DNA from: a virus
IMG/VR virus record: IMGVR_UViG_3300042112_000078
Location: 1 to 20,901 of that record
Length of the DNA stretch: 20,901 bases
Reading direction: 5' to 3' (one strand)
The notes under the pieces are model-generated. The model did not search any database. It saw nothing but the letters and a program-made list of their open reading frames with translations, and was not told the DNA's origin. Positions 1,691 through 19,884 of the stretch are shown in pieces. Within the stretch, counting starts at the first letter, position 1. Each line of letters starts with the position of its first letter. Both the position numbers and the translations under genes were made by a program.

Positions 1691-3514
1691 ATGCCGAATA
1701 AAAAGATAAATGAATTAACTCCAAGAACTCCTACGATAACGGACTTGATTATTGTAGGAGACCCTGCTTCGGGTTATTCATACAAAGCGACTATTTCTAC
1801 TATTTCTACTTTCGTAGGTAATAACATTCAATTCAGTTCTTTAGGTGGCATTTCTTTGAGTTCTCCTACGAATGGTCAGGTATTAACTTATAATGGAACG
1901 AATTGGGTTAATCAGACTCCTGCTGCTGTTCCTGTTACAAGTGTGTTCGGTCGCACAGGTGCGGTTGTAGCTGCGGAAGGAGATTACAATTTAGGACAAT
2001 TAGGAGATGTTACGATTACAACTCCTACAAGCGGTCAGGTTCTTAAATATAACGGAACGGCTTGGGTAAACGATAGCGACACAGACACAGGGATTGTTAG
2101 CCTTAATGGATTAACTGCGACTACGCAGACATTCGCAACAGGTACAAGTGGAACGGACTTTGCGATTACTTCAACTACTTCAACGCATACTTTTAATCTA
2201 CCGATTGCTTCAGCTACGAATACAGGTAAGTTATCTTCTACGGATTGGAGTACGTTTAATGCAAAGCAAAGTGCGATTACTTTAACGACCACAGGTTCAA
2301 GCGGTTCAGCTACGTTCGTTTCTAATACACTTAATATCCCTACTTATACTCTTGCAGGTCTCGGTGGAGTTAGTGGCTCAGGCACTACCAACTATATCTC
2401 CAAGTGGACAGGTACAAGTGCATTGGGAAACTCACAGATATTTGATAATGGAACGAGTGTGGGAATTGGAACTGCAAGTCCGAGTGCTTCATATTTATTA
2501 GATGTCAACGGAACTGCAAGAGTGCAGAACTCAGCTTACTTTGCTACAACAAGTGGGAACGTAGGAATTGGTACTACTTCTGTATCAAATAGTGCAAGTG
2601 AAAGAGTTTTACAATTAAACGCATTATATTATTCTACTTTTAGATTGAGAAATGATGCTAATACTGTAACAACAATTTTAAGTAATAATGCTAGCGGATG
2701 GGGGTATGTTGGAACAGAAACAAATCATCCTTTTTTATTTCTTACCAATAATACAGAACGTGCAAGGATTACCGCTGCTGGTCGCTTACTCATCGGAACA
2801 ACTACCGAATCGACGTATTTGCTTGATGTAAACGGAACATCGAGAGTTCGTGAATATCTCTATATGTTGCGTTCAGATGGTGCTGCAACTATCGCTGCTC
2901 TGACATATCAACCCGGGAATACTATTGATATTGGGAACACGTTTCGTGTACTTGGTACTAACAGATGGCAAAACACAGTAGGGTCTGCATCATACATTGA
3001 AAATAACTATTTCACAAAAGTATTTGCATCGGTACCACAAACAAACGGAAATTGGACAATGTACGACTTTCAATTGTTCGGTAGTATGGCTCCCACCATT
3101 GCTGCATCATACAGTCAAAAAGTTATTGGTACTGCGTTTACAATTCAAAGTACCGCGGTAAATAGTTTCTTTGGTGTTGATGTAAGAGCAACAGACAATT
3201 CATCATCAATAGCAAACAATGTGTATGCAATTTATGGTGACGCAACACTTGGAACAAATACTTCGGCGAATCGTTGGGCGGGATATTTTATCGGTCGTGG
3301 ATATTTTAGTCAAGTATTAGCAATTGGTACAACTTCGCCGAATGCATCAGCTCTTTTAGATGTAAGCAGTACAACAAAGGGTTTCCTACCTCCGAGAATG
3401 ACCAATGCACAAATGGTGGCAATAGCAACTCCTGCCACTGGGTTGGTTGTTTACGATACCACAAACAATAAACTAAACGTGTACGATGGTACAAATTGGG
3501 TCGCAACTCACTAA
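1691..3514 (+). CDS. phage tail fibre / receptor-binding protein
   Basis: This is a 607-residue protein rich in Ser, Thr, Asn and Gly, typical of trimeric beta-structured fibres. An N-terminal segment (KINELTPRTPTITDLIIVGD) resembles the virion-anchoring start of Bacteroidetes phage fibres. Internal repeats are plain: 'GQVLTYNGTNWV' and 'GQVLKYNGTAWV'; then 'LLDVNGTARV', 'LLDVNGTSRV' and 'LLDVSST', each after an IGT(A/T) motif. Residues 564-607 hold the end module 'GFLPPRMTNAQMVAI ... YDTTNNKLNVYDGTNW'. No C-terminal S74-type chaperone domain is visible. The region between the second and third LLDV modules is probably the variable part. It is the largest virion gene here and likely sets host range. 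Confidence 0.82.
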   Translation: MPNKKINELTPRTPTITDLIIVGDPASGYSYKATISTISTFVGNNIQFSSLGGISLSSPTNGQVLTYNGTNWVNQTPAAVPVTSVFGRTGAVVAAEGDYNLGQLGDVTITTPTSGQVLKYNGTAWVNDSDTDTGIVSLNGLTATTQTFATGTSGTDFAITSTTSTHTFNLPIASATNTGKLSSTDWSTFNAKQSAITLTTTGSSGSATFVSNTLNIPTYTLAGLGGVSGSGTTNYISKWTGTSALGNSQIFDNGTSVGIGTASPSASYLLDVNGTARVQNSAYFATTSGNVGIGTTSVSNSASERVLQLNALYYSTFRLRNDANTVTTILSNNASGWGYVGTETNHPFLFLTNNTERARITAAGRLLIGTTTESTYLLDVNGTSRVREYLYMLRSDGAATIAALTYQPGNTIDIGNTFRVLGTNRWQNTVGSASYIENNYFTKVFASVPQTNGNWTMYDFQLFGSMAPTIAASYSQKVIGTAFTIQSTAVNSFFGVDVRATDNSSSIANNVYAIYGDATLGTNTSANRWAGYFIGRGYFSQVLAIGTTSPNASALLDVSSTTKGFLPPRMTNAQMVAIATPATGLVVYDTTNNKLNVYDGTNWVATH

Positions 3515-10066: not shown

Positions 10067-10708
10067 TTATCCCCATTGATCAGCCATAGCTTTAGCTATA
10101 AGTGGAAATCTAAATGATCGTGCTACCATTCTATCTTCAGATGTTTTTGAATTAGTTAATCCTTTATAATGCCACATTGGATCTCTTTTTTTTCTTCCTG
10201 TTTTTTTACAAATCCATTCATAAAATTCACCTTTATCTACTGATTCACCAAATAAAGGAGCATCATAATGAGTAGCAACTAATTTTTTTAATCCATTAAT
10301 CCATAAGCAAGTAGTTTTCTGTGCTGCGTGACCAAAGTGGTATGGTTGAATAATTTGATCTGGCTTTCTATAAATTTTACTCATAATGCCAACAGGGTTC
10401 TCTATACATACTTTTGGTATTTTAGTATTAGTAAATAATAAAAAAAAATCTATTGCTAATTTTTGTCTACCATCTTGCTGCTTCTTTTTGAAATGCATAG
10501 CACCGCTTGATGCAAGATGCGTACAAGGTGGGTGAGCTATCATCATATCCCAATCATTATTTAATACTTTTGTTACATCATCTTTTATATGCCATTCAGG
10601 ATGTCCTCCGCTGCAATCTTTAAGATCACAAGAATATGCTTCGTGACCTTTTTCTCTAAAAGCCTTACACATAATTTGTGATTCTTCACAAGCTATAAGT
10701 ATTTTCAT
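10067..10708 (-). CDS. small phage DNA cytosine-methyltransferase-like protein
   Basis: From the ATG at 10708, which overlaps the NinG stop in ATGA, the protein has 213 residues. A SAM-binding-type start 'MKILIACEESQ' leads to 'FREKGHEAYSCDLKDCSGGHPEWH'. 'IAHPPCTHLASSG' (58-69) contains the PPC motif with C62 as the nucleophile candidate. 'CIENPVGIMS' (101-110) carries the ENP motif. These are C5-MTase motifs, yet the protein lacks a normal target-recognition domain, as in many short phage homologues. By eye the gene is more AT-rich than its neighbours, with T/A runs, suggesting acquisition. Activity and target are unknown. Confidence 0.7.
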   Translation of the reverse strand: MKILIACEESQIMCKAFREKGHEAYSCDLKDCSGGHPEWHIKDDVTKVLNNDWDMMIAHPPCTHLASSGAMHFKKKQQDGRQKLAIDFFLLFTNTKIPKVCIENPVGIMSKIYRKPDQIIQPYHFGHAAQKTTCLWINGLKKLVATHYDAPLFGESVDKGEFYEWICKKTGRKKRDPMWHYKGLTNSKTSEDRMVARSFRFPLIAKAMADQWG

Positions 10709-11097
10709 TTGTAGTAGTTTATTATTTCCTCTAATTCGCTTCGAGACCATTTCTTTAATGGGTTCTCCAAAGCATACTCTTCTAATTCCTTTACGAACTC
10801 TTCTCCGTATCTCGATACAAGTCCTAAGCGGTATCTAATAAGATTACCAGAGAGGAACATATTACATCTGATACATTGACCGTTCGTGTTATAGTATGCT
10901 AACGAATCAGGGAGACCGAATCTTAGTCCGCTATGTTGCCCCTGAGAGTGGTAGTGTCCCGCTTGCTGAACTTCTGATCCGCAGGAAATACAGCCGAAGT
11001 CTTTATCTCTTTCCCTTATGTGTGCGTTGAACTTTTCCTGTGCTTTCTTTAATAACTTGGGGAGAGGGATTGACTTTTTGCTCTGATAGTTTTTCAT
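10705..11097 (-). CDS. ninG: NinG/Rap-like recombination protein
   Basis: From the ATG at 11097 the protein is 130 residues; the ATG at 11106 is possible. It shows the lambda NinG pattern: 'LPKLLKKAQEKFNAHIRERD', CISCG (36-40), 'AGHYHSQGQHSGLRF' (46-60), 'QCIRCNMFLSGN' (74-85), then 'YRLGLVSRYGEEFVKELE'. The two CxxC pairs form a zinc-binding HNH-like core. NinG/Rap acts in phage Red-type recombination as a branched-DNA endonuclease. It lies a few genes downstream of an ERF annealing protein, which fits a recombination module. It overlaps the preceding gene by 95 bases. Confidence 0.75.
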   Translation of the reverse strand: MKNYQSKKSIPLPKLLKKAQEKFNAHIRERDKDFGCISCGSEVQQAGHYHSQGQHSGLRFGLPDSLAYYNTNGQCIRCNMFLSGNLIRYRLGLVSRYGEEFVKELEEYALENPLKKWSRSELEEIINYYK

Positions 11098-13779: not shown

Positions 13780-14271
13780 GTGAATCGCTCAGAGATCATA
13801 ACGGAACTCTACTTATCGAAGGACATTAACGAAGCCATCGGGAAGATGCAACCTTATGAACTGCAAGAGGAACTAAGGCAGGAAGTCTTTTTAGTGCTTT
13901 GTGAGATGGATGAGGAGCGTTTACTGAAAATGTACTCAGATGGATATTTGAAGTATTTTGTAGTCCGTACCATCGTGAATATGGCTAAGAGCGACCGCAG
14001 TAACTTCGCTCGGACTTTTCGAAGAGTTTATGAAGAGGTGGGAGATTTAGGATCAGTTGAGCCTTACGATGAGTCTATAAGCGAGAAGCTGAGTAAGTCT
14101 ATGGAGATTCTACACTGGTACGAAGAACAAATCTTCAAACTTTATGCTGAATGTGGTAACTTACTTCAAGTTTCAAGAGATACGAAGATTCCGTACCGGT
14201 CGCTTCTAAAAACCATAAAGAAAGTAAAGACATTACTCAAATACAAAATTAGAAACTATGCACACGATTAG
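13780..14271 (+). CDS. sigma-70-like / DNA-binding regulator, first gene of rightward operon
   Basis: A 163-residue protein starting with GTG; the only upstream ATG in the same frame region (ATG at 13757) runs into a stop after eight codons. Residues 25-80 resemble sigma region 2 ('LQEELRQEVFLVL', 'YLKYFVVRTIVNMAKSDRSNFARTFRR'). Residues 110-155 resemble the region 4 helix-turn-helix ('YEEQIFKLYAECGNLLQVSRDTKIPYRSLLKTIKKV'). Short sigma-like proteins occur at the head of late operons in many Bacteroidetes phages. It may direct transcription of the following late genes. Region 2 motifs are weak, so it could be only HTH-like. Confidence 0.6.
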   Translation: MNRSEIITELYLSKDINEAIGKMQPYELQEELRQEVFLVLCEMDEERLLKMYSDGYLKYFVVRTIVNMAKSDRSNFARTFRRVYEEVGDLGSVEPYDESISEKLSKSMEILHWYEEQIFKLYAECGNLLQVSRDTKIPYRSLLKTIKKVKTLLKYKIRNYAHD

Positions 14272-14512
14272 TATCATCTTAGCTGCGAACCTATTTACGT
14301 TCTATGCGATTACTCAATCTCGTTTATTCGAGAAGTGGGGATGGAACTTCAAACCCTTCACCTGTCCCTTGTGTTTAACCGCTTGGGTAGGTCTGGCTTT
14401 GTTCTTACTACCTGACTTCGTTACCTACGGAACTTTGGCTATGTTTGGCTCTGGGGTATTCGCTCCCTACTTTAAGAACTTCCTTATCAACATCTACAAT
14501 AAATTCCAATGA
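14258..14512 (+). CDS. small membrane protein with CPLCLTAW motif
   Basis: An 84-residue hydrophobic protein: TM segment 3-20, then 'CPLCLTAWVGLALFLLP' near residues 45-60, and a third hydrophobic stretch near the end. The CPxC motif next to a membrane span is found in a family of phage and bacterial membrane proteins of unknown role. It overlaps the sigma-like gene by 14 bases and the next by 4. Confidence 0.55.
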   Translation: MHTISIILAANLFTFYAITQSRLFEKWGWNFKPFTCPLCLTAWVGLALFLLPDFVTYGTLAMFGSGVFAPYFKNFLINIYNKFQ

Positions 14513-14826
14513 CAAAGCAAGAGGTAGATTTTCTTATTCAGCATAAGATAAACTTCGATTCAGTTAAGCTCGGATTCACTCGAAACATTCCTTTCGAGGT
14601 ACTCGGAGAATATGAGCAACTCTATCGGAAGTATTTAGATGGTCAGTTTATTCTGACGTATTGGTGCGGTGCTTGTGTATTCGATATGCTTGAGAGATTG
14701 ATTAGATACTGCGAAGATCAACAGGAGTACATCAATGCAATGAATCCACAAACGTATGAATCTACAAAAGTGGAATCTGCACAAACTGATGTGCAACCTA
14801 AAAAGAGAGGGAGACCTAAGAAATGA
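14509..14826 (+). CDS. conserved phage protein with basic AT-hook-like tail
   Basis: A 105-residue protein. The first 70 residues are helical with a characteristic 'YWCGACVFDMLERLIRYCE' segment. The C-terminus is low complexity and ends in KKRGRPKK, which resembles an AT-hook (RGRP core). That tail suggests binding to the minor groove of AT-rich DNA. Neighbours overlap by 4 bases on each side. The function is unknown. Confidence 0.55.
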   Translation: MTKQEVDFLIQHKINFDSVKLGFTRNIPFEVLGEYEQLYRKYLDGQFILTYWCGACVFDMLERLIRYCEDQQEYINAMNPQTYESTKVESAQTDVQPKKRGRPKK

Positions 14827-15830
14827 GGATACTCGTAATTACTCAGCAGAACTCAGGTGTAGGTTATCACAGATTAATGCTACCTGTCCACTTCCTACCG
14901 AAGACCTATGCTCTTATTACTGATGTGCTAAGCGAAGATACTCTCAAAGAAGGATGGGATATTGTTTACATCAATCGATTCATACCTGCGATTCATATCT
15001 CAGTTCTTGAAGATTTTAAGGAGCGTTACGGATTCAAGTTAGTAATCGATATCGATGATTATTGGCACTTAGACCAATGGCACATACTCAAAGATGTTTA
15101 TCCTACTCAGGCGGTAATCGACCATATCAAAATCGCTGACCTGGTTACTACCACTACCGAAAGACTATGGAATGAGATTAGACCTATCAATTCTAACGTA
15201 GCGATAGTACCGAACGCTTTGCCTTATGGTGAGGATCAATTTACCGATGTTGTAACAAAAAGCGACAAGATTCGTTTCATATACGCAGGTTCAATCACTC
15301 ACGAGAAAGACCTTCAGATACTCCAAAACCCACTAAAGAAAGTCGCATCGGACTCTAACTTAAAATCAAAAGTGCATTTTCGGTTGTGCGGATTCGATAA
15401 TCCGAACAGATACTCGGAAGCGGTATGGCATAAGATGATACACTACTTTACAGCAGGACTAAAACTCGGAGACATTGAAAGGAACAAACCTGTAACCGAG
15501 TATATGAACTTTTATAATAACGCAGATGCTACGATAGTACCTCTCGTTCCTTCTAAGTTCAACTCGATGAAGAGTAATCTAAAAATCTTAGAAGCTGCTT
15601 GTAAGAAGATTCCTGTTATCATTTCTAACGTACCGCCATACGATGATGCACCTCACGTAATCAAAATAGATAAGCAAACCGAGTGGTATTCAGCGATTAA
15701 AAAAATCACAGAAGATTCTATTTATAGGAAAGAACTCGGAGAAGCGAATTACGAATGGTGTAACGAGCATTTCAATTTGCACAAAGTAAACATCCTTAGA
15801 AAACAATTATTCGAATCTATATGCCAGTAA
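14823..15830 (+). CDS. GT4-like glycosyltransferase
   Basis: A 335-residue two-domain protein of the GT-B type. The N-terminal domain begins 'MRILVITQQNSGVGYHRLML' and carries 'KLVIDIDDYWHLDQWH' (72-87). The C-terminal Rossmann domain starts 'KIRFIYAGSITHEKDLQIL' (149-167), with 'SKFNSMKSNLKILEAACKKIPVI' (244-266) holding E257 in the position of the conserved EX7E-type sugar-nucleotide glutamate. Such enzymes add sugars from nucleotide donors. Here it heads a sugar/acyl cassette inside the late operon, so it may modify phage DNA, virion or host surface polysaccharide. Donor and acceptor cannot be read from sequence. Confidence 0.75.
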   Translation: MRILVITQQNSGVGYHRLMLPVHFLPKTYALITDVLSEDTLKEGWDIVYINRFIPAIHISVLEDFKERYGFKLVIDIDDYWHLDQWHILKDVYPTQAVIDHIKIADLVTTTTERLWNEIRPINSNVAIVPNALPYGEDQFTDVVTKSDKIRFIYAGSITHEKDLQILQNPLKKVASDSNLKSKVHFRLCGFDNPNRYSEAVWHKMIHYFTAGLKLGDIERNKPVTEYMNFYNNADATIVPLVPSKFNSMKSNLKILEAACKKIPVIISNVPPYDDAPHVIKIDKQTEWYSAIKKITEDSIYRKELGEANYEWCNEHFNLHKVNILRKQLFESICQ

Positions 15831-16021
15831 CTCAATGTAAGAACGGAAAGTGGAAAATCGGTACAGGAGAATGTCAGTACGATACAAAAGAAAAGGCTAT
15901 GGAAGTATGGCAAGCAATTTTAGCATCAGGACAATATGGCAAAGTTAACAACAAACAAAGTAACCTTCGGAAAACGGAAGGGGGGCAAAGCTCAGAAGAG
16001 CAGAAACAAAAACAATCGTAA
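15821..16021 (+). CDS. small phage protein with KWKIGTGECQYDT motif
   Basis: A 66-residue protein with 'PVTQCKNGKWKIGTGECQYD' then a helix 'TKEKAMEVWQAILASGQYG'. This small motif (NGKW.IG.G.C.Y.T...A...W.AIL) is frequent in phage proteins, sometimes fused to larger ones. The last 28 or so residues overlap the 38-codon ORF in another frame and look unselected. It overlaps the glycosyltransferase by 10 bases. Confidence 0.6.
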   Translation: MPVTQCKNGKWKIGTGECQYDTKEKAMEVWQAILASGQYGKVNNKQSNLRKTEGGQSSEEQKQKQS

Positions 16022-16052
16022 GGAGAGAAACTATCGAGGTCAAGGAAGATGA
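15936..16052 (+). CDS. 38-residue highly basic protein
   Basis: Read directly: ATG at 15936, TGA at 16050-16052 overlapping the acyltransferase ATG (ATGA). It starts MAKLTTNKVTFGKRKGGKAQ and ends in NYRGQGR, with 13 Lys/Arg and no aromatics except F and Y. I recall similar 'FGKRKGGKAKK...KYRGQGR' mini-proteins in other Bacteroidetes phages. It may bind nucleic acid or condense DNA. It overlaps the upstream gene by 86 bases. Confidence 0.6.
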   Translation: MAKLTTNKVTFGKRKGGKAQKSRNKNNRKERNYRGQGR

Positions 16053-16537
16053 TACACGAATCAGCTTACATACATCCGACTGCGGTAATCTATCCTAACG
16101 TAGTAATCGAAGAGAATGTCTATATCGGTGCTTTGTGTATTATTGGAAGTCCTGCGGAGTGGAAAGGTAAAGAAGATAACACAGGCAAAGTAATAATCAA
16201 GAAAGGATCAAGGCTCACAGGATTAGTAACTGTCGATTCAGGAACGCATCAGAATACAATCATCGGAGAGAATTGTTACCTAATGAAGCACTCGCACGTA
16301 GGACACGATGCGATTATTCAGGATGGAGTAGTGTTAAGTTGCGGTGCGAAAATCGGAGGACATTCGATTATCCATAAAAATACTAACATAGGACTGAATG
16401 CAGTTATCCATCAGAAGGTAGTCGTACCCGAAGGATGTATGATAGGTGCTTCCGCTTTCGTAGGTAAGAAATCAGAGTTACAACCATTTCATAAATACGC
16501 AGGAGTACCTGTAAAAGATTTAGGATGGAATCGCTAA
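16049..16537 (+). CDS. left-handed beta-helix (hexapeptide) acyltransferase
   Basis: A 162-residue protein made of hexapeptide repeats ([IV]-x-x-x-x-x) beginning 'AYIHPTAVIYPNVVIEENVYIG' and continuing 'TIIGENCYLMKHSHVGHDAII', 'GVVLSCGAKIGGHSII' and 'NIGLNAVIHQKVVVPEGCMIG'. The 'HSHVGHDAII' loop resembles the catalytic His region of LpxA-type acyltransferases. This family moves acyl or acetyl groups from CoA or ACP to sugars. It lies between two glycosyltransferases, pointing to an acylated sugar product. Substrate is unknown. Confidence 0.75.
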   Translation: MIHESAYIHPTAVIYPNVVIEENVYIGALCIIGSPAEWKGKEDNTGKVIIKKGSRLTGLVTVDSGTHQNTIIGENCYLMKHSHVGHDAIIQDGVVLSCGAKIGGHSIIHKNTNIGLNAVIHQKVVVPEGCMIGASAFVGKKSELQPFHKYAGVPVKDLGWNR

Positions 16538-17172
16538 ACATAAACGTCATACTCTTAGACTACGATAGGCACGACTATACTCAGAGGGTAAAGGATGTGA
16601 ACTTCAATAACGCAGGATATCCTTTCGATTTTACCATAGTGGATATGAAAGGAATCTCACGAGCATTGAACCACGGAATCTTCCAATCAAGAACCTACGA
16701 TGCGGTAGTTACAATGGCTAACGATATTCTGATGCCTAATAGTTGGCTCGAAAGAATGGTACAAGCTATGATAACCATTCCTAACTCTGGAATGATAGGA
16801 ATACATACAGTCGAAAGTATCTCAGAGCCTACCACGATAAACGGACTTCAAGTACACATACAAGAAGCAGCCTTCGGGAATGTTCTTATTCCTATGAAAG
16901 CGATAGATAAGATAGGATACTTTAACGAAGCCTACGATCCTTACGGAATGCAGGATAGAGATTACTCATACCGGTTACAAATGACAGGACATTTGAATTA
17001 CTATCTAAGCGGACTCCGAGCAGAACACATAGGACACGATGTAGGACAGGACACTCCTTATCGAAAGATGAAAGACGAAGGACTGAGCAAATGCGATTAC
17101 TTATGGGCAAGGGAGACAGGAAAATACCAAGAAGAAAATAACTATACTATCTATCAAACAGAATGGCTATGA
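16525..17172 (+). CDS. GT2-like glycosyltransferase (GT-A fold)
   Basis: A 215-residue protein. 'NINVILLDYDRHDYTQRVKD' begins the nucleotide-sugar-binding half. 'AVVTMANDILMPNSWLERMV' (60-79) is in the place of the DXD metal motif. 'YFNEAYDPYGMQDRDYSYRL' (132-151) matches the acceptor-site (E/D)DxDxxxR motif of GT2 enzymes, with D144, D146 and R150. 'RAEHIGHDVG' follows. It overlaps the acyltransferase by 13 bases and the methyltransferase by 10. Together with the upstream glycosyltransferase it could build a short glycan. The first motif is a variant, so activity is likely but not certain. Confidence 0.65.
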   Translation: MESLNINVILLDYDRHDYTQRVKDVNFNNAGYPFDFTIVDMKGISRALNHGIFQSRTYDAVVTMANDILMPNSWLERMVQAMITIPNSGMIGIHTVESISEPTTINGLQVHIQEAAFGNVLIPMKAIDKIGYFNEAYDPYGMQDRDYSYRLQMTGHLNYYLSGLRAEHIGHDVGQDTPYRKMKDEGLSKCDYLWARETGKYQEENNYTIYQTEWL

Positions 17173-18350
17173 TTAAAGTACCTATCAGCCAAGTAAAAGC
17201 GAACCCGAACAATCCGAGAATAATTAAGGATGATAAGTTCAAAAAGCTCGTAAAAAGCATTCAGGAGTTCCCTGAAATGCTTGAGTTAAGACCTATCGTA
17301 GTCAATGAAGATATGGTCGTACTCGGTGGGAATATGCGATTGAAAGCCTGTAAAGAAGCAGGACTTGATAAAGTACCTGTTATCAAAGCAAGCAACCTAA
17401 CAGAAGAGCAGCAGAAGGAATTTATCATTAAGGATAACGTAGGATTCGGAGAATGGGATTGGAACGACTTAGCGAATAATTGGGAGACAGAAAAGCTACA
17501 AGAGTGGGGGTTGGATATACCTGGGTTTGAAGCAGAAGTATTAGAAGCAGAGGAAGATGACTTCGCAGCACCTGAAGGTGGAATAGAAACGGATATCGTA
17601 TTAGGAGATTTGTTTGAGATAGGAGAGCATCGTTTGCTTTGTGGGGATTCAACGGATAGCGACCAAGTGGCAAAGTTAATGAACGGACAAAAGACGGATA
17701 TGGTATTTACCGACCCACCATACGGAATGTTTTTAGATACTGATTATTCTCAAATAAAGGGTTCTGAAAAGTCAATCGGATTTAAAGGAAATAAAACAGG
17801 AAATAAATACGACAAGATTATTGGTGACAATGAAGATTTTACTCCCGAACTAATTAATACCATCTTTGCAAACTTTAATTATTGCAAGGAGATTTTTATT
17901 TGGGGAGCAGATTATTTCATTGACCTTATACCAAACTACGGAAAGGATGGCAGTTGGTTTGTTTGGAATAAAAGGAGTAGCGAAGCTCAACAAAGAGGAA
18001 TCGGAAATACATTTGAGCTTTGTTGGAGTAAAACAAAACACAAAAGAATTGTATTTGATTTTGAATGGTTTGGGTTTTTAAGCAAGGATGACCCAAATGA
18101 AGCTCGTAATAGAGTTCATCCATCAATGAAGCCATCCAAACTTTTATCAAGATTGATAAATGATTATTGTAAAGGAGATAGATTGGTTGACCTGTTTCTC
18201 GGAAGTGGCTCTACAATGGTAGCAGCACATCAACTCAAACGCAAATGCTACGGAATGGAACTTGACCCTAAATACTGCCAAGTGATTGTGGACAGGATGA
18301 AGAAACTTGATCCGACTTTGGTAATCAAAAAGAATGGGTTACCTATCTGA
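17163..18350 (+). CDS. ParB-like domain fused to beta-class DNA methyltransferase (m6A/m4C)
   Basis: A 395-residue protein; an ATG at 17169 that overlaps the upstream TGA in ATGA is an alternative start. Residues 1-92 form a ParB/Srx-like domain with 'VVLGGNMRLKACKEAGLDKVPVI'. The methyltransferase follows: 'VFTDPPYGMF' (181-190, motif IV), then a variable region, then 'DLFLGSGSTMVAAHQL' (343-358, motif I) and 'YGMELDPKYC'. DPPY before FxGxG is the beta-class order; the region between is expected to recognise the target. By eye, 17726-18190 is more AT-rich than its flanks, suggesting an exchanged recognition segment. It would mark phage DNA against host restriction. Confidence 0.82.
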   Translation: MAMIKVPISQVKANPNNPRIIKDDKFKKLVKSIQEFPEMLELRPIVVNEDMVVLGGNMRLKACKEAGLDKVPVIKASNLTEEQQKEFIIKDNVGFGEWDWNDLANNWETEKLQEWGLDIPGFEAEVLEAEEDDFAAPEGGIETDIVLGDLFEIGEHRLLCGDSTDSDQVAKLMNGQKTDMVFTDPPYGMFLDTDYSQIKGSEKSIGFKGNKTGNKYDKIIGDNEDFTPELINTIFANFNYCKEIFIWGADYFIDLIPNYGKDGSWFVWNKRSSEAQQRGIGNTFELCWSKTKHKRIVFDFEWFGFLSKDDPNEARNRVHPSMKPSKLLSRLINDYCKGDRLVDLFLGSGSTMVAAHQLKRKCYGMELDPKYCQVIVDRMKKLDPTLVIKKNGLPI

Positions 18351-18373: not shown

Positions 18374-18736
18374 ATGGCAAACGAACAGAACTTAATACCT
18401 GCTAAGAAAGGAGAGGTAAGGAATCCTAACGGAAGACCTAAGAAGTACGTAACACTTCTAAGAGAGCAAGGATATAAACTATCCGAGATAAACGATACGA
18501 TTCAAACGATGCTTCAAATGGACTTAGACGAACTTAAAGAGGTATGGGATAATCCGAAGGCTACGATATTAGAAAAAACCATAGCCAACGCTATGAAGAA
18601 AAGTCTGGAGAAAGGTAGCCTGTATTCGGTTGAAACTCTGCTCACTCGTGTATATGGTAAGCCAAAAGAAACTCAGCAGGTCAGTACAGATTCACGAATC
18701 GAAGTAGTATTCGTGAAGGGTAAAACAATTCTATGA
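18374..18736 (+). CDS. terminase small subunit-like protein
   Basis: A 120-residue protein with the start 'LIPAKKGEVRNPNGRPKKYV', a motif (KKGE.RNPNGRPKK) common at the N-terminus of phage small terminase-type proteins. Helices 'LLREQGYKLSEIND' and 'ATILEKTIANAMKKSLEKGSL' follow. It lies directly before the large terminase, overlapping it by 4 bases. It would recognise the packaging site and pass DNA to the large subunit. Confidence 0.7.
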   Translation: MANEQNLIPAKKGEVRNPNGRPKKYVTLLREQGYKLSEINDTIQTMLQMDLDELKEVWDNPKATILEKTIANAMKKSLEKGSLYSVETLLTRVYGKPKETQQVSTDSRIEVVFVKGKTIL

Positions 18737-19884
18737 CACTTGAGCTTCCTGAACCGCATATCAATCAACAGAAAATCCTTGACAGCGAAGCAAGATTCAG
18801 GGTGGTTATGTGCGGTCGAAGATTCGGTAAATCAGAACTCAGCCAAATAGAGATCATAAGTAACGCTTTACTCGGTAAGTCAGTAGCATACATAACTCCA
18901 ACCTATCAGCTCGCCAGAGTATTCTTTGATAGGTTAATACTCGCAGTTCCGTTTCAGTCCAACAAATCAGAACTCACGATTAAGTTCCCGAATGGTGGCT
19001 CGGTAGATTTCTTTACGGGAGAGAGATTAGACAACCTACGTGGTCGCAAATTCCACTTAGTTGTAGTAGATGAGGCTTCGTTCATTCCTAACCTCGAAGA
19101 TGGATGGCTTAACTCAATCCGACCTACCTTAACCGACTACAAAGGTCGAGCGTTATTCCTAAGCACTCCGAAAGGTAAGAACTTTTTTTACTCGCTATTC
19201 CTGAAAGGTGGCGAACCTGATTGGGAGTCCTTCAGATTTACTACCTATGATAATCCTTATATCGACAAGGGAGAGATAGATGATGCACGTACTCAACTTC
19301 CTGAAGTAGTCTTCGAGCAGGAGTATATGGCTAACCCTGCTGAGAACTCATCTAATCCTTTCGGGTCTGCTTATATCAAACAATGCACATACGCATTAAG
19401 TACAGAACAACCGATAGTGTATGGAATCGACTTAGCGAAGGCGGTAGATTGGACTGTGATTATAGGACTCGATAGAAACGGCTCGGTCTGTCATTTCGAT
19501 AGATTCCAAAAAGATTGGAGACAAACCAAGCAAACTATCCTAAGCCTAAATAAAGCTCCTATTTTGATAGATAGCACAGGGGTAGGTGATCCTATCTTCG
19601 AGGATTTACAACGTGAAGGATTGGCTATAAATGGCTTCAAATTCAGTTCTACCACAAAGCAACAACTAATGGAAGGACTAAGCTCAGCGATTCAGCAAAG
19701 GAAGATAACTTATCCCGAAGGACATATCGTAAACGAGTTAGAGGTATTCGAGTATCAGTACACAGCGACAGGGGTAAGGTACTCAGCTCCGCAGGGATTT
19801 CACGATGACTGCGTAATGAGTCTGGCTTTGGCTTGGCATCACTATACTCGGAACTCAGGACAGGGTAGGTATAGTTTTGCTTGA
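18733..19884 (+). CDS. terL: terminase large subunit
   Basis: A 383-residue packaging motor with clear motifs. Walker A is 'CGRRFGKSE' (27-35). Walker B is 'LVVVDEAS' (109-116) with D113/E114. The coupling motif is 'STPKGKN' (144-150). The nuclease half shows 'YGIDLAKAVDWT' (D233), 'ILIDSTGVGDP' (D280) and 'HDDCVMSLALA' (D358/D359). It pumps DNA into the prohead and cuts the concatemer. Length is slightly short but all motor and nuclease motifs are present. It is the most reliable phage marker in the window. Confidence 0.92.
   Translation: MTLELPEPHINQQKILDSEARFRVVMCGRRFGKSELSQIEIISNALLGKSVAYITPTYQLARVFFDRLILAVPFQSNKSELTIKFPNGGSVDFFTGERLDNLRGRKFHLVVVDEASFIPNLEDGWLNSIRPTLTDYKGRALFLSTPKGKNFFYSLFLKGGEPDWESFRFTTYDNPYIDKGEIDDARTQLPEVVFEQEYMANPAENSSNPFGSAYIKQCTYALSTEQPIVYGIDLAKAVDWTVIIGLDRNGSVCHFDRFQKDWRQTKQTILSLNKAPILIDSTGVGDPIFEDLQREGLAINGFKFSSTTKQQLMEGLSSAIQQRKITYPEGHIVNELEVFEYQYTATGVRYSAPQGFHDDCVMSLALAWHHYTRNSGQGRYSFA

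What the first reader, a model, noticed from the sequence alone, without database searches (positions are those of the whole stretch)
14823..17172. Sugar/acyl-transfer cassette inside the late operon
A GT4-like enzyme, a hexapeptide acyltransferase and a GT2-like enzyme lie in a row with overlaps, just before a DNA methyltransferase and terminase. This set is enough to build and acylate a glycan. Targets could be hypermodified DNA, the virion, or host surface polysaccharide. I know no described system of exactly this composition.
Basis: partly seen in the sequence, partly recalled or inferred. Interest (0 to 1): 0.6.

Follow-up and report, generated by a model that had tools for sequence, protein, structure and literature searches.

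The report
Phage sugar-coating gene cassette
An uncultivated freshwater phage carries, next to its DNA-packaging genes, a conserved set of sugar-adding and sugar-capping enzymes that most likely decorate its own virus particle, and almost the same set recurs in over a hundred related viral contigs of phages of Bacteroidota bacteria.

Summary
The window encodes a GT-B glycosyltransferase (GT4 type), an LpxA-like hexapeptide acyltransferase and a GT-A glycosyltransferase (GT2 type) in one operon with a ParB-MTase fusion and terminase. The genes are under strong purifying selection (dN/dS 0.005-0.17). GT4 is in all 35 long related genomes checked and lies upstream of TerL on the same strand in 113 of 113 dereplicated contigs. 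The acyltransferase is followed by a GT2 in 79 of 86. Where it is missing, a methyltransferase replaces it, with or without a PLOD-type GT. DNA as the target is unlikely: DNA modification sits in a separate, exchangeable slot behind a ParB domain, base-hydroxylating candidates are absent in 31 of 35 genomes, and the cassette persists without any DNA-modification gene. Host-LPS conversion is disfavoured: soluble enzymes, late operon, no close host homologue found. The best reading is cytoplasmic glycosylation of virion proteins with an acyl or methyl cap, analogous to mycobacteriophage virion glycosylation but not detectably homologous. Confidence is about 0.55. The acceptor is inferred, not shown.

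The parts
13780..14271 (+). SIG: small HTH/sigma-like protein at the operon start (GTG start), core gene of the lineage
   Evidence: 30 of 30 long genomes; no Pfam or PHROG match; sigma-like nature is my reading of the sequence
14258..14512 (+). TM: 84-aa hydrophobic protein with CPLC motif (weak PHROG 781)
   Evidence: Kyte-Doolittle 19-residue maximum 1.86; 24 of 30 genomes
14509..14826 (+). g105: conserved 105-aa protein, AT-hook-like C-terminus (KKRGRPKK)
   Evidence: 28 of 30 genomes; function unknown
14823..15830 (+). GT4-type glycosyltransferase, GT-B fold
   Evidence: Pfam and PHROG; AlphaFold pLDDT 96, matches GlgM, BshA, MshA; 35 of 35 genomes
15821..16021 (+). 66-aa ORF overlapping the GT4 end; its start resembles that of longer proteins at the same place in relatives
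   Evidence: cluster of 14; no PHROG match
16049..16537 (+). LpxA-like hexapeptide acyltransferase without the LpxA C-terminal region
   Evidence: Hexapep 4.6e-20; PDB 8e62 E 5e-38, then LpxA enzymes; invariant H83, H86, D87, H105, H121, Q122
16525..17172 (+). GT2-type glycosyltransferase, GT-A fold
   Evidence: PF00535; AlphaFold pLDDT 91, matches ppGalNAc-T and WrtF; dN/dS 0.005-0.05 for the window-type subfamily
17163..18350 (+). ParB-N + N6_N4 DNA methyltransferase fusion: the DNA-modification slot, probably a separate function
18374..18736 (+). Small terminase-like protein (weak DUF5681)
   Evidence: below the family's cut-off; 22 of 30 genomes; position before TerL
18733..19884 (+). Large terminase
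   Evidence: Terminase_6N and 6C, PHROG 2

Best explanation
The trio is a virion-glycosylation module of an uncultivated ~35-kb tailed-phage lineage of Bacteroidota. It is transcribed with the terminase, tail and capsid genes, and its enzymes act in the cytoplasm during particle assembly. Using host nucleotide sugars, one glycosyltransferase (perhaps GT4, the constant member) places a first sugar on a phage structural protein. The LpxA-like enzyme acylates a UDP-HexNAc-type sugar or the growing glycan, and the GT2 adds the acylated sugar. Related phages replace the acyl cap by an O-methyl cap (Methyltransf_24 plus a PLOD-type GT, or a Methyltransf_23-like enzyme), so the same core glycan comes with exchangeable outer chemistry. 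Shown: enzyme families and predicted folds, operon position, core conservation, module swapping, purifying selection. Inferred: acceptor, sugar identity, acyl donor and order of steps.
For: GT4 is as universal as TerL and SIG: 30 of 30 in the gene clustering and 35 of 35 by search. Its divergence tracks the core genes (r 0.76-0.95). It lies on the same strand as TerL in 113 of 113 dereplicated contigs, median 2.8 kb upstream. The acyltransferase is followed by a GT2 in 79 of 86, and fully flanked GT4 loci always carry an acyl- or methyltransferase (24 HEX+GT2; 15 GT2+PLOD+MT24; 4 MT23; none bare). No predicted membrane segment in the trio. GT4 has no homologue at E<=1e-20 in 300 genomes of the Mucilaginibacter order apart from a prophage copy. 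Similar acyltransferase-GT2 sets occur in large (56-162 kb) viral contigs. Precedent: virion glycosylation by phage GTs. Distant GT4 homologues occur in phAPEC8-type coliphages, relatives of a group reported as very restriction-sensitive, so that family need not shield DNA.
Against: No direct evidence for any acceptor: no mass spectrometry, no isolated phage. No homology to the mycobacteriophage glycosyltransferases was detected. Late expression would also fit modification of a host protein or of surface receptors just before lysis. A distant Mucilaginibacter prophage has GT4 without a neighbouring acyl- or methyltransferase.
Confidence: 0.55

Rival explanations
1. The trio modifies host surface polysaccharide late in infection (receptor masking, superinfection exclusion, or release of progeny from debris).
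For: The acyltransferase belongs to the LpxA group, whose known substrate is the lipid A precursor UDP-GlcNAc. GT2 and GT4 enzymes are common in O-antigen pathways (general knowledge). A small hydrophobic protein is encoded in the same operon.
Against: No flippase, no membrane-anchored GT and no predicted membrane segment in the trio. Position in the late operon rather than a lysogeny module. No close homologue of GT4 or of the acyltransferase in 300 host-order genomes at the thresholds used (the second without a positive control).
Confidence: 0.2
2. The trio hypermodifies phage DNA: a base bearing a hydroxyl is glycosylated and acylated.
For: Neighbouring DNA methyltransferase. Some relatives carry TET/JBP or thymidylate-synthase-like genes.
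Against: TET/JBP in 2 of 35 and thymidylate-synthase-like genes in 2 others, against GT4 in 35 of 35. The cassette persists with Mom, C5-MTase, 7-deazaguanine, TET or no DNA-modification gene. DNA-modification modules occupy their own slot, and TET there often comes with a separate GT-like protein that is not related to GT4 by BLASTP.
Confidence: 0.12
3. The trio glycosylates a non-virion target: a host protein, a small molecule or a phage regulator such as g105.
For: g105 and SIG are nearly as conserved as GT4 and sit directly upstream. GT4-fold neighbours include small-molecule GTs such as BshA and MshA.
Against: The interchangeable acyl and methyl caps fit exposed antigen-like decoration better than a fixed regulatory modification (inference).
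Confidence: 0.13

Closest known systems
Virion glycosylation of mycobacteriophages Che8, Corndog and Myrna (Freeman et al. 2023, as cited in PMC12363180 and PMC11256854)
   Same: Phage-encoded glycosyltransferases of a tailed phage that modify, or here are inferred to modify, capsid or tail proteins
   Different: No sequence match detected. Here the genes sit beside the terminase, GT4 is a lineage-wide core gene, and an LpxA-like acyltransferase or methyltransferases replace each other. Virion glycans are not shown here.
LpxA (UDP-GlcNAc acyltransferase) and the 189-aa PDB entry 8e62
   Same: Left-handed beta-helix hexapeptide family; conserved His/Asp and IHQ motifs of the LpxA active site
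   Different: 162 aa, lacking the LpxA C-terminal region; found embedded in glycosyltransferase cassettes; acyl donor unknown
PHROG 7162 glycosyltransferases of Phapecoctavirus, Justusliebigvirus and similar coliphages
   Same: Same GT4 family over the full length (about 31% identity); also within a GT cluster
   Different: Different neighbours: four GTs in a row, no annotated hexapeptide enzyme, not next to the terminase
DNA glycosylation (T4 alpha/beta-GT, RB69 arabinosylation, TET-linked GTs)
   Same: Phage glycosyltransferases; GT-B fold
   Different: No base-hydroxylating candidate in 31 of 35 relatives; DNA modification has a separate slot
Serotype-converting gtr operons of temperate phages
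   Same: Phage-encoded GTs and acetyltransferases
   Different: No GtrA-like flippase or membrane GT; late operon rather than lysogenic expression

Membership tests
GT4 glycosyltransferases | Glycos_transf_1-type domain and GT-B fold | tested here: met
   Pfam Glyco_trans_1_4 above cut-off; AlphaFold pLDDT 96 with GT4 neighbours
GT4 glycosyltransferases | E-x7-E nucleotide-sugar motif | tested here: inconclusive
   Second Glu (E257) invariant; the first is not; K250, S251 and N252 invariant instead
GT2 glycosyltransferases | Glycos_transf_2 match and GT-A fold | tested here: met
   PF00535 25.0 bits against 23.3 cut-off; model matches GT-A enzymes
GT2 glycosyltransferases | Canonical DxD metal site | tested here: inconclusive
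   Invariant N66-D67 at the expected place; D144 and D146 also invariant
Hexapeptide (LbH) acyltransferases | Hexapeptide repeats | tested here: met
   PF00132 70.8 bits
LpxA | Active-site His and IHQ motif | tested here: met
   H83, H86, D87, H105, H121, Q122 invariant; H86, D87, H105, H121 and Q122 align with the same residues of Campylobacter LpxA
LpxA | Full-length enzyme with C-terminal domain (about 260 aa) | tested here: not met
   162 aa against 257-305 aa for the LpxA chains; so not LpxA itself
Phage virion glycosylation (Che8 type) | Glycan on capsid or tail proteins | not testable with these tools
   Needs mass spectrometry
Phage virion glycosylation (Che8 type) | Glycosyltransferase homologous to the Che8, Corndog or Myrna enzymes | tested here: inconclusive
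   GT2: no tblastn match in 50,697 phage records at 1e-5. GT4: 136 matches, mostly coliphages; no mycobacteriophage among the groups named, but four records' groups are not named
Glycosylated hypermodified DNA | Enzyme creating a hydroxylated base (TET/JBP, thymidylate-synthase-like hydroxymethylase) | tested here: not met
   Not seen in the window (a fragment); absent in 31 of 35 long relatives
gtr serotype-conversion operon | Membrane flippase and membrane-anchored GT | tested here: not met
   Highest 19-residue hydropathy of the trio 1.34; only an 84-aa hydrophobic protein of unknown function nearby

The most novel reading that the evidence does not exclude
A whole lineage of Bacteroidota tailed phages builds an obligatory glycan coat on its virions with a constant core glycosyltransferase and exchangeable outer caps (acyl by an LpxA-like enzyme, or O-methyl), a phage counterpart of bacterial surface-antigen variation, alongside an equally exchangeable DNA-modification slot in the same operon.
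Probability: 0.4. Interest if true: 0.68.

Novelty: new variant of a known kind. Interest (0 to 1): 0.5.

Why it matters
Virion glycosylation is documented for only a few phages. If this cassette glycosylates virions, it would be a lineage-wide core trait of widespread freshwater phages with a visible logic: fixed core, swappable caps. That would make it testable what a phage glycan coat is for (adsorption, particle stability, protection from proteases or grazers). The separate DNA-modification slot is also a clean natural experiment in anti-restriction module exchange.

Tried and rejected
Nucleotide search of phage records found nothing. GT4 search in genome contigs found no relative. The PLOD/collagen idea (a PLOD-type GT acting on collagen-like fibres) was dropped: no G-X-Y run above 6 repeats in any of the long genomes. 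The profile comparison of the two GT2 subfamilies is circular, because the second alignment contained the window sequence, and is not used. Association of cassette type with other gene clusters reflects relatedness of the genomes and names no acceptor. Consensus promoter and terminator scans gave no more than chance. Whether GT4 and HEX also occur inside bacterial polysaccharide loci was tested only in one order; the HEX search found nothing at 1e-25 and had no positive control. The Ser/Thr-rich fibre protein at 1691-3514 is a possible acceptor but was not tested further. The Freeman et al. 2023 paper itself is not held, so it is used only through papers that cite it.

Full report
What is there. 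The window is a complete 20,901-base IMG/VR virus record, itself a genome fragment. The three genes exist at the stated coordinates: a GT4-type enzyme at 14823-15830, a hexapeptide acyltransferase at 16049-16537 and a GT2-type enzyme at 16525-17172, followed by a ParB-N + N6_N4 methyltransferase fusion, a small-terminase-like protein and TerL. From 13780 onward the genes of this block lie on one strand with overlaps or short gaps. In relatives the same strand continues into tail, capsid and portal genes, so 'late operon' is a fair description.

Are the enzymes real? Pfam and PHROG matches are significant for all three. AlphaFold models are confident: GT4 has pLDDT 96 and a GT-B fold closest to GlgM, BshA and MshA; GT2 has pLDDT 91 and a GT-A fold closest to polypeptide GalNAc-transferases and the WrtF fucosyltransferase. 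Such fold matches do not fix the substrate. The acyltransferase matches PDB 8e62, named UDP-N-acetylglucosamine acyltransferase, at E 5e-38 and then LpxA enzymes. Its H83, H86, D87, H105, H121 and Q122 are invariant across 27 relatives and fall on the LpxA His, GH and IHQ motifs, but it lacks the LpxA C-terminal region. Pairwise dN/dS is about 0.005-0.10 for GT2, 0.04-0.08 for GT4 and 0.05-0.17 for the acyltransferase, against 0.03-0.08 for TerL.

How conserved? Scans of viral contigs gave 71 GT4, 67 acyltransferase, 67 GT2 and 80 TerL loci, merged to 202 contigs and dereplicated to 164. The order SIG-TM-g105-GT4-(small ORF)-HEX-GT2-[ParB/MTase]-TerS-TerL recurs throughout. Among 30 long genomes GT4 is in all, like TerL and SIG, and a wider search found it in 35 of 35. 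Since many of these records were found through GT4 or its neighbours, these frequencies are not an unbiased census, although the TerL scan found loci independently of the cassette. GT4 divergence correlates with that of SIG (r 0.95), portal (0.91), MCP (0.85) and TerL (0.76), so it is inherited with the core.

Module logic. Two other versions of the cassette occur: GT4 - GT2' - PLOD-type GT - Methyltransf_24 protein, and GT4 with a Methyltransf_23-like protein. Of 43 dereplicated GT4 loci with both flanks, 24 have HEX+GT2, 15 have GT2+PLOD+MT24, 4 have MT23 alone, and none is bare. The acyltransferase is followed by a GT2 within 1.5 kb in 79 of 86 cases. In large viral contigs (56-162 kb; sizes) the same acyltransferase sits between other glycosyltransferases. 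This is what one expects of a glycan with a constant base and an exchangeable acyl or methyl cap.

Which target? DNA: the slot between GT2 and TerS holds DNA modification. When the ParB domain is fused to the N6_N4 methyltransferase, no recognised module follows (61 of 61 contigs). When ParB stands alone, Mom (17), TET with or without a GT-like partner (9), an ABC-ATPase/GNAT protein (4), a C5-MTase (2) or a 7-deazaguanine set (2) follows in 34 of 40 (contigs not dereplicated). Mom and Tet_JBP are Pfam identities and QueD a PHROG identity; the GNAT, C5, DpdA, QueE and FolE labels are my reading of the sequences. The glycan cassette is present with all of these and with none. TET/JBP occurs in 2 of 35 and thymidylate-synthase-like genes in 2 of 35 genomes. 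Relatives of GT4 at about 31% identity occur in phAPEC8-type coliphages, relatives of the Vequintavirinae, which the BASEL study found exceptionally restriction-sensitive together with their relatives (PMC8594841). Whether the tested BASEL isolates themselves carry this GT4 was not checked. DNA is therefore unlikely as the acceptor.

Host surface: the trio has no predicted membrane segment and no flippase partner. GT4 has no homologue at E<=1e-20 in 300 genomes of the Mucilaginibacter order except a prophage, and the acyltransferase none at 1e-25, the latter without a positive control. These points make classical lysogenic LPS conversion unlikely, though late receptor masking is not excluded.

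Virion: by elimination, by late-operon position, by core status and by precedent in mycobacteriophages, cytoplasmic glycosylation of virion proteins is the best explanation, at about 0.55. The acceptor is not identified.

Host and lifestyle. TerL relatives lie in Bacteroidota: a Chitinophagaceae MAG contig with SIG-TM-g105-HEX-GT2-GT4-...-TerL (L330), a Mucilaginibacter pedocola prophage with SIG-GT4-TerL-tail-capsid (L336), and Pollutibacter soli regions with TerL but no GT found. More distant TerL matches in other phyla carry none of the cassette. The lineage is thus tied to Bacteroidota and has temperate relatives. No close isolate exists in the phage collection.

Novelty. Phage virion glycosylation is known; this gene set, its lineage-wide core status and its exchangeable caps are, as far as my limited literature search shows, a new variant.

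Noticed in passing
window 17163-18350 and the same slot in relatives: Exchangeable DNA-modification slot: full ParB-MTase fusion with no further module (61 contigs), or ParB alone followed by Mom, TET(+GT-like), ABC-GNAT, C5-MTase or 7-deazaguanine genes (34 of 40). Nearly perfect mutual exclusion.
   Followed up: partly
L180:7198-8990, also L174, L143, L097: TET/JBP dioxygenase paired with an unannotated ~300-aa GT-like protein that matches no PHROG: a candidate DNA-hypermodification pair.
   Followed up: partly
L048, L115, L229: 7-deazaguanine DNA-modification genes (DpdA-like, QueD, QueE, FolE) in small ~35-kb phages.
   Followed up: no
L336:7810-21122: Prophage of cultured Mucilaginibacter pedocola TBZ30 with SIG, GT4, TerL, tail and capsid genes: a possible laboratory entry point to this lineage.
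   Followed up: partly
L091, L107, L108, L110: Viral contigs, crAss-like by my reading (three of them 56-115 kb long), carry a GT2-acyltransferase-GT2 cassette with an about 70-77% identical acyltransferase: transfer between unrelated phages.
   Followed up: no
L099, first ORF (1255 aa): Collagen-like protein with 198 G-X-Y repeats on a contig that also carries the acyltransferase.
   Followed up: no
window 10067-10750 (-): Second methyltransferase-like gene (PHROG 757, weak C5-MTase Pfam match) in the early region.
   Followed up: no
window 1691-3514: Ser/Thr-rich (26%) 607-aa fibre-like protein; a possible glycan acceptor.
   Followed up: no
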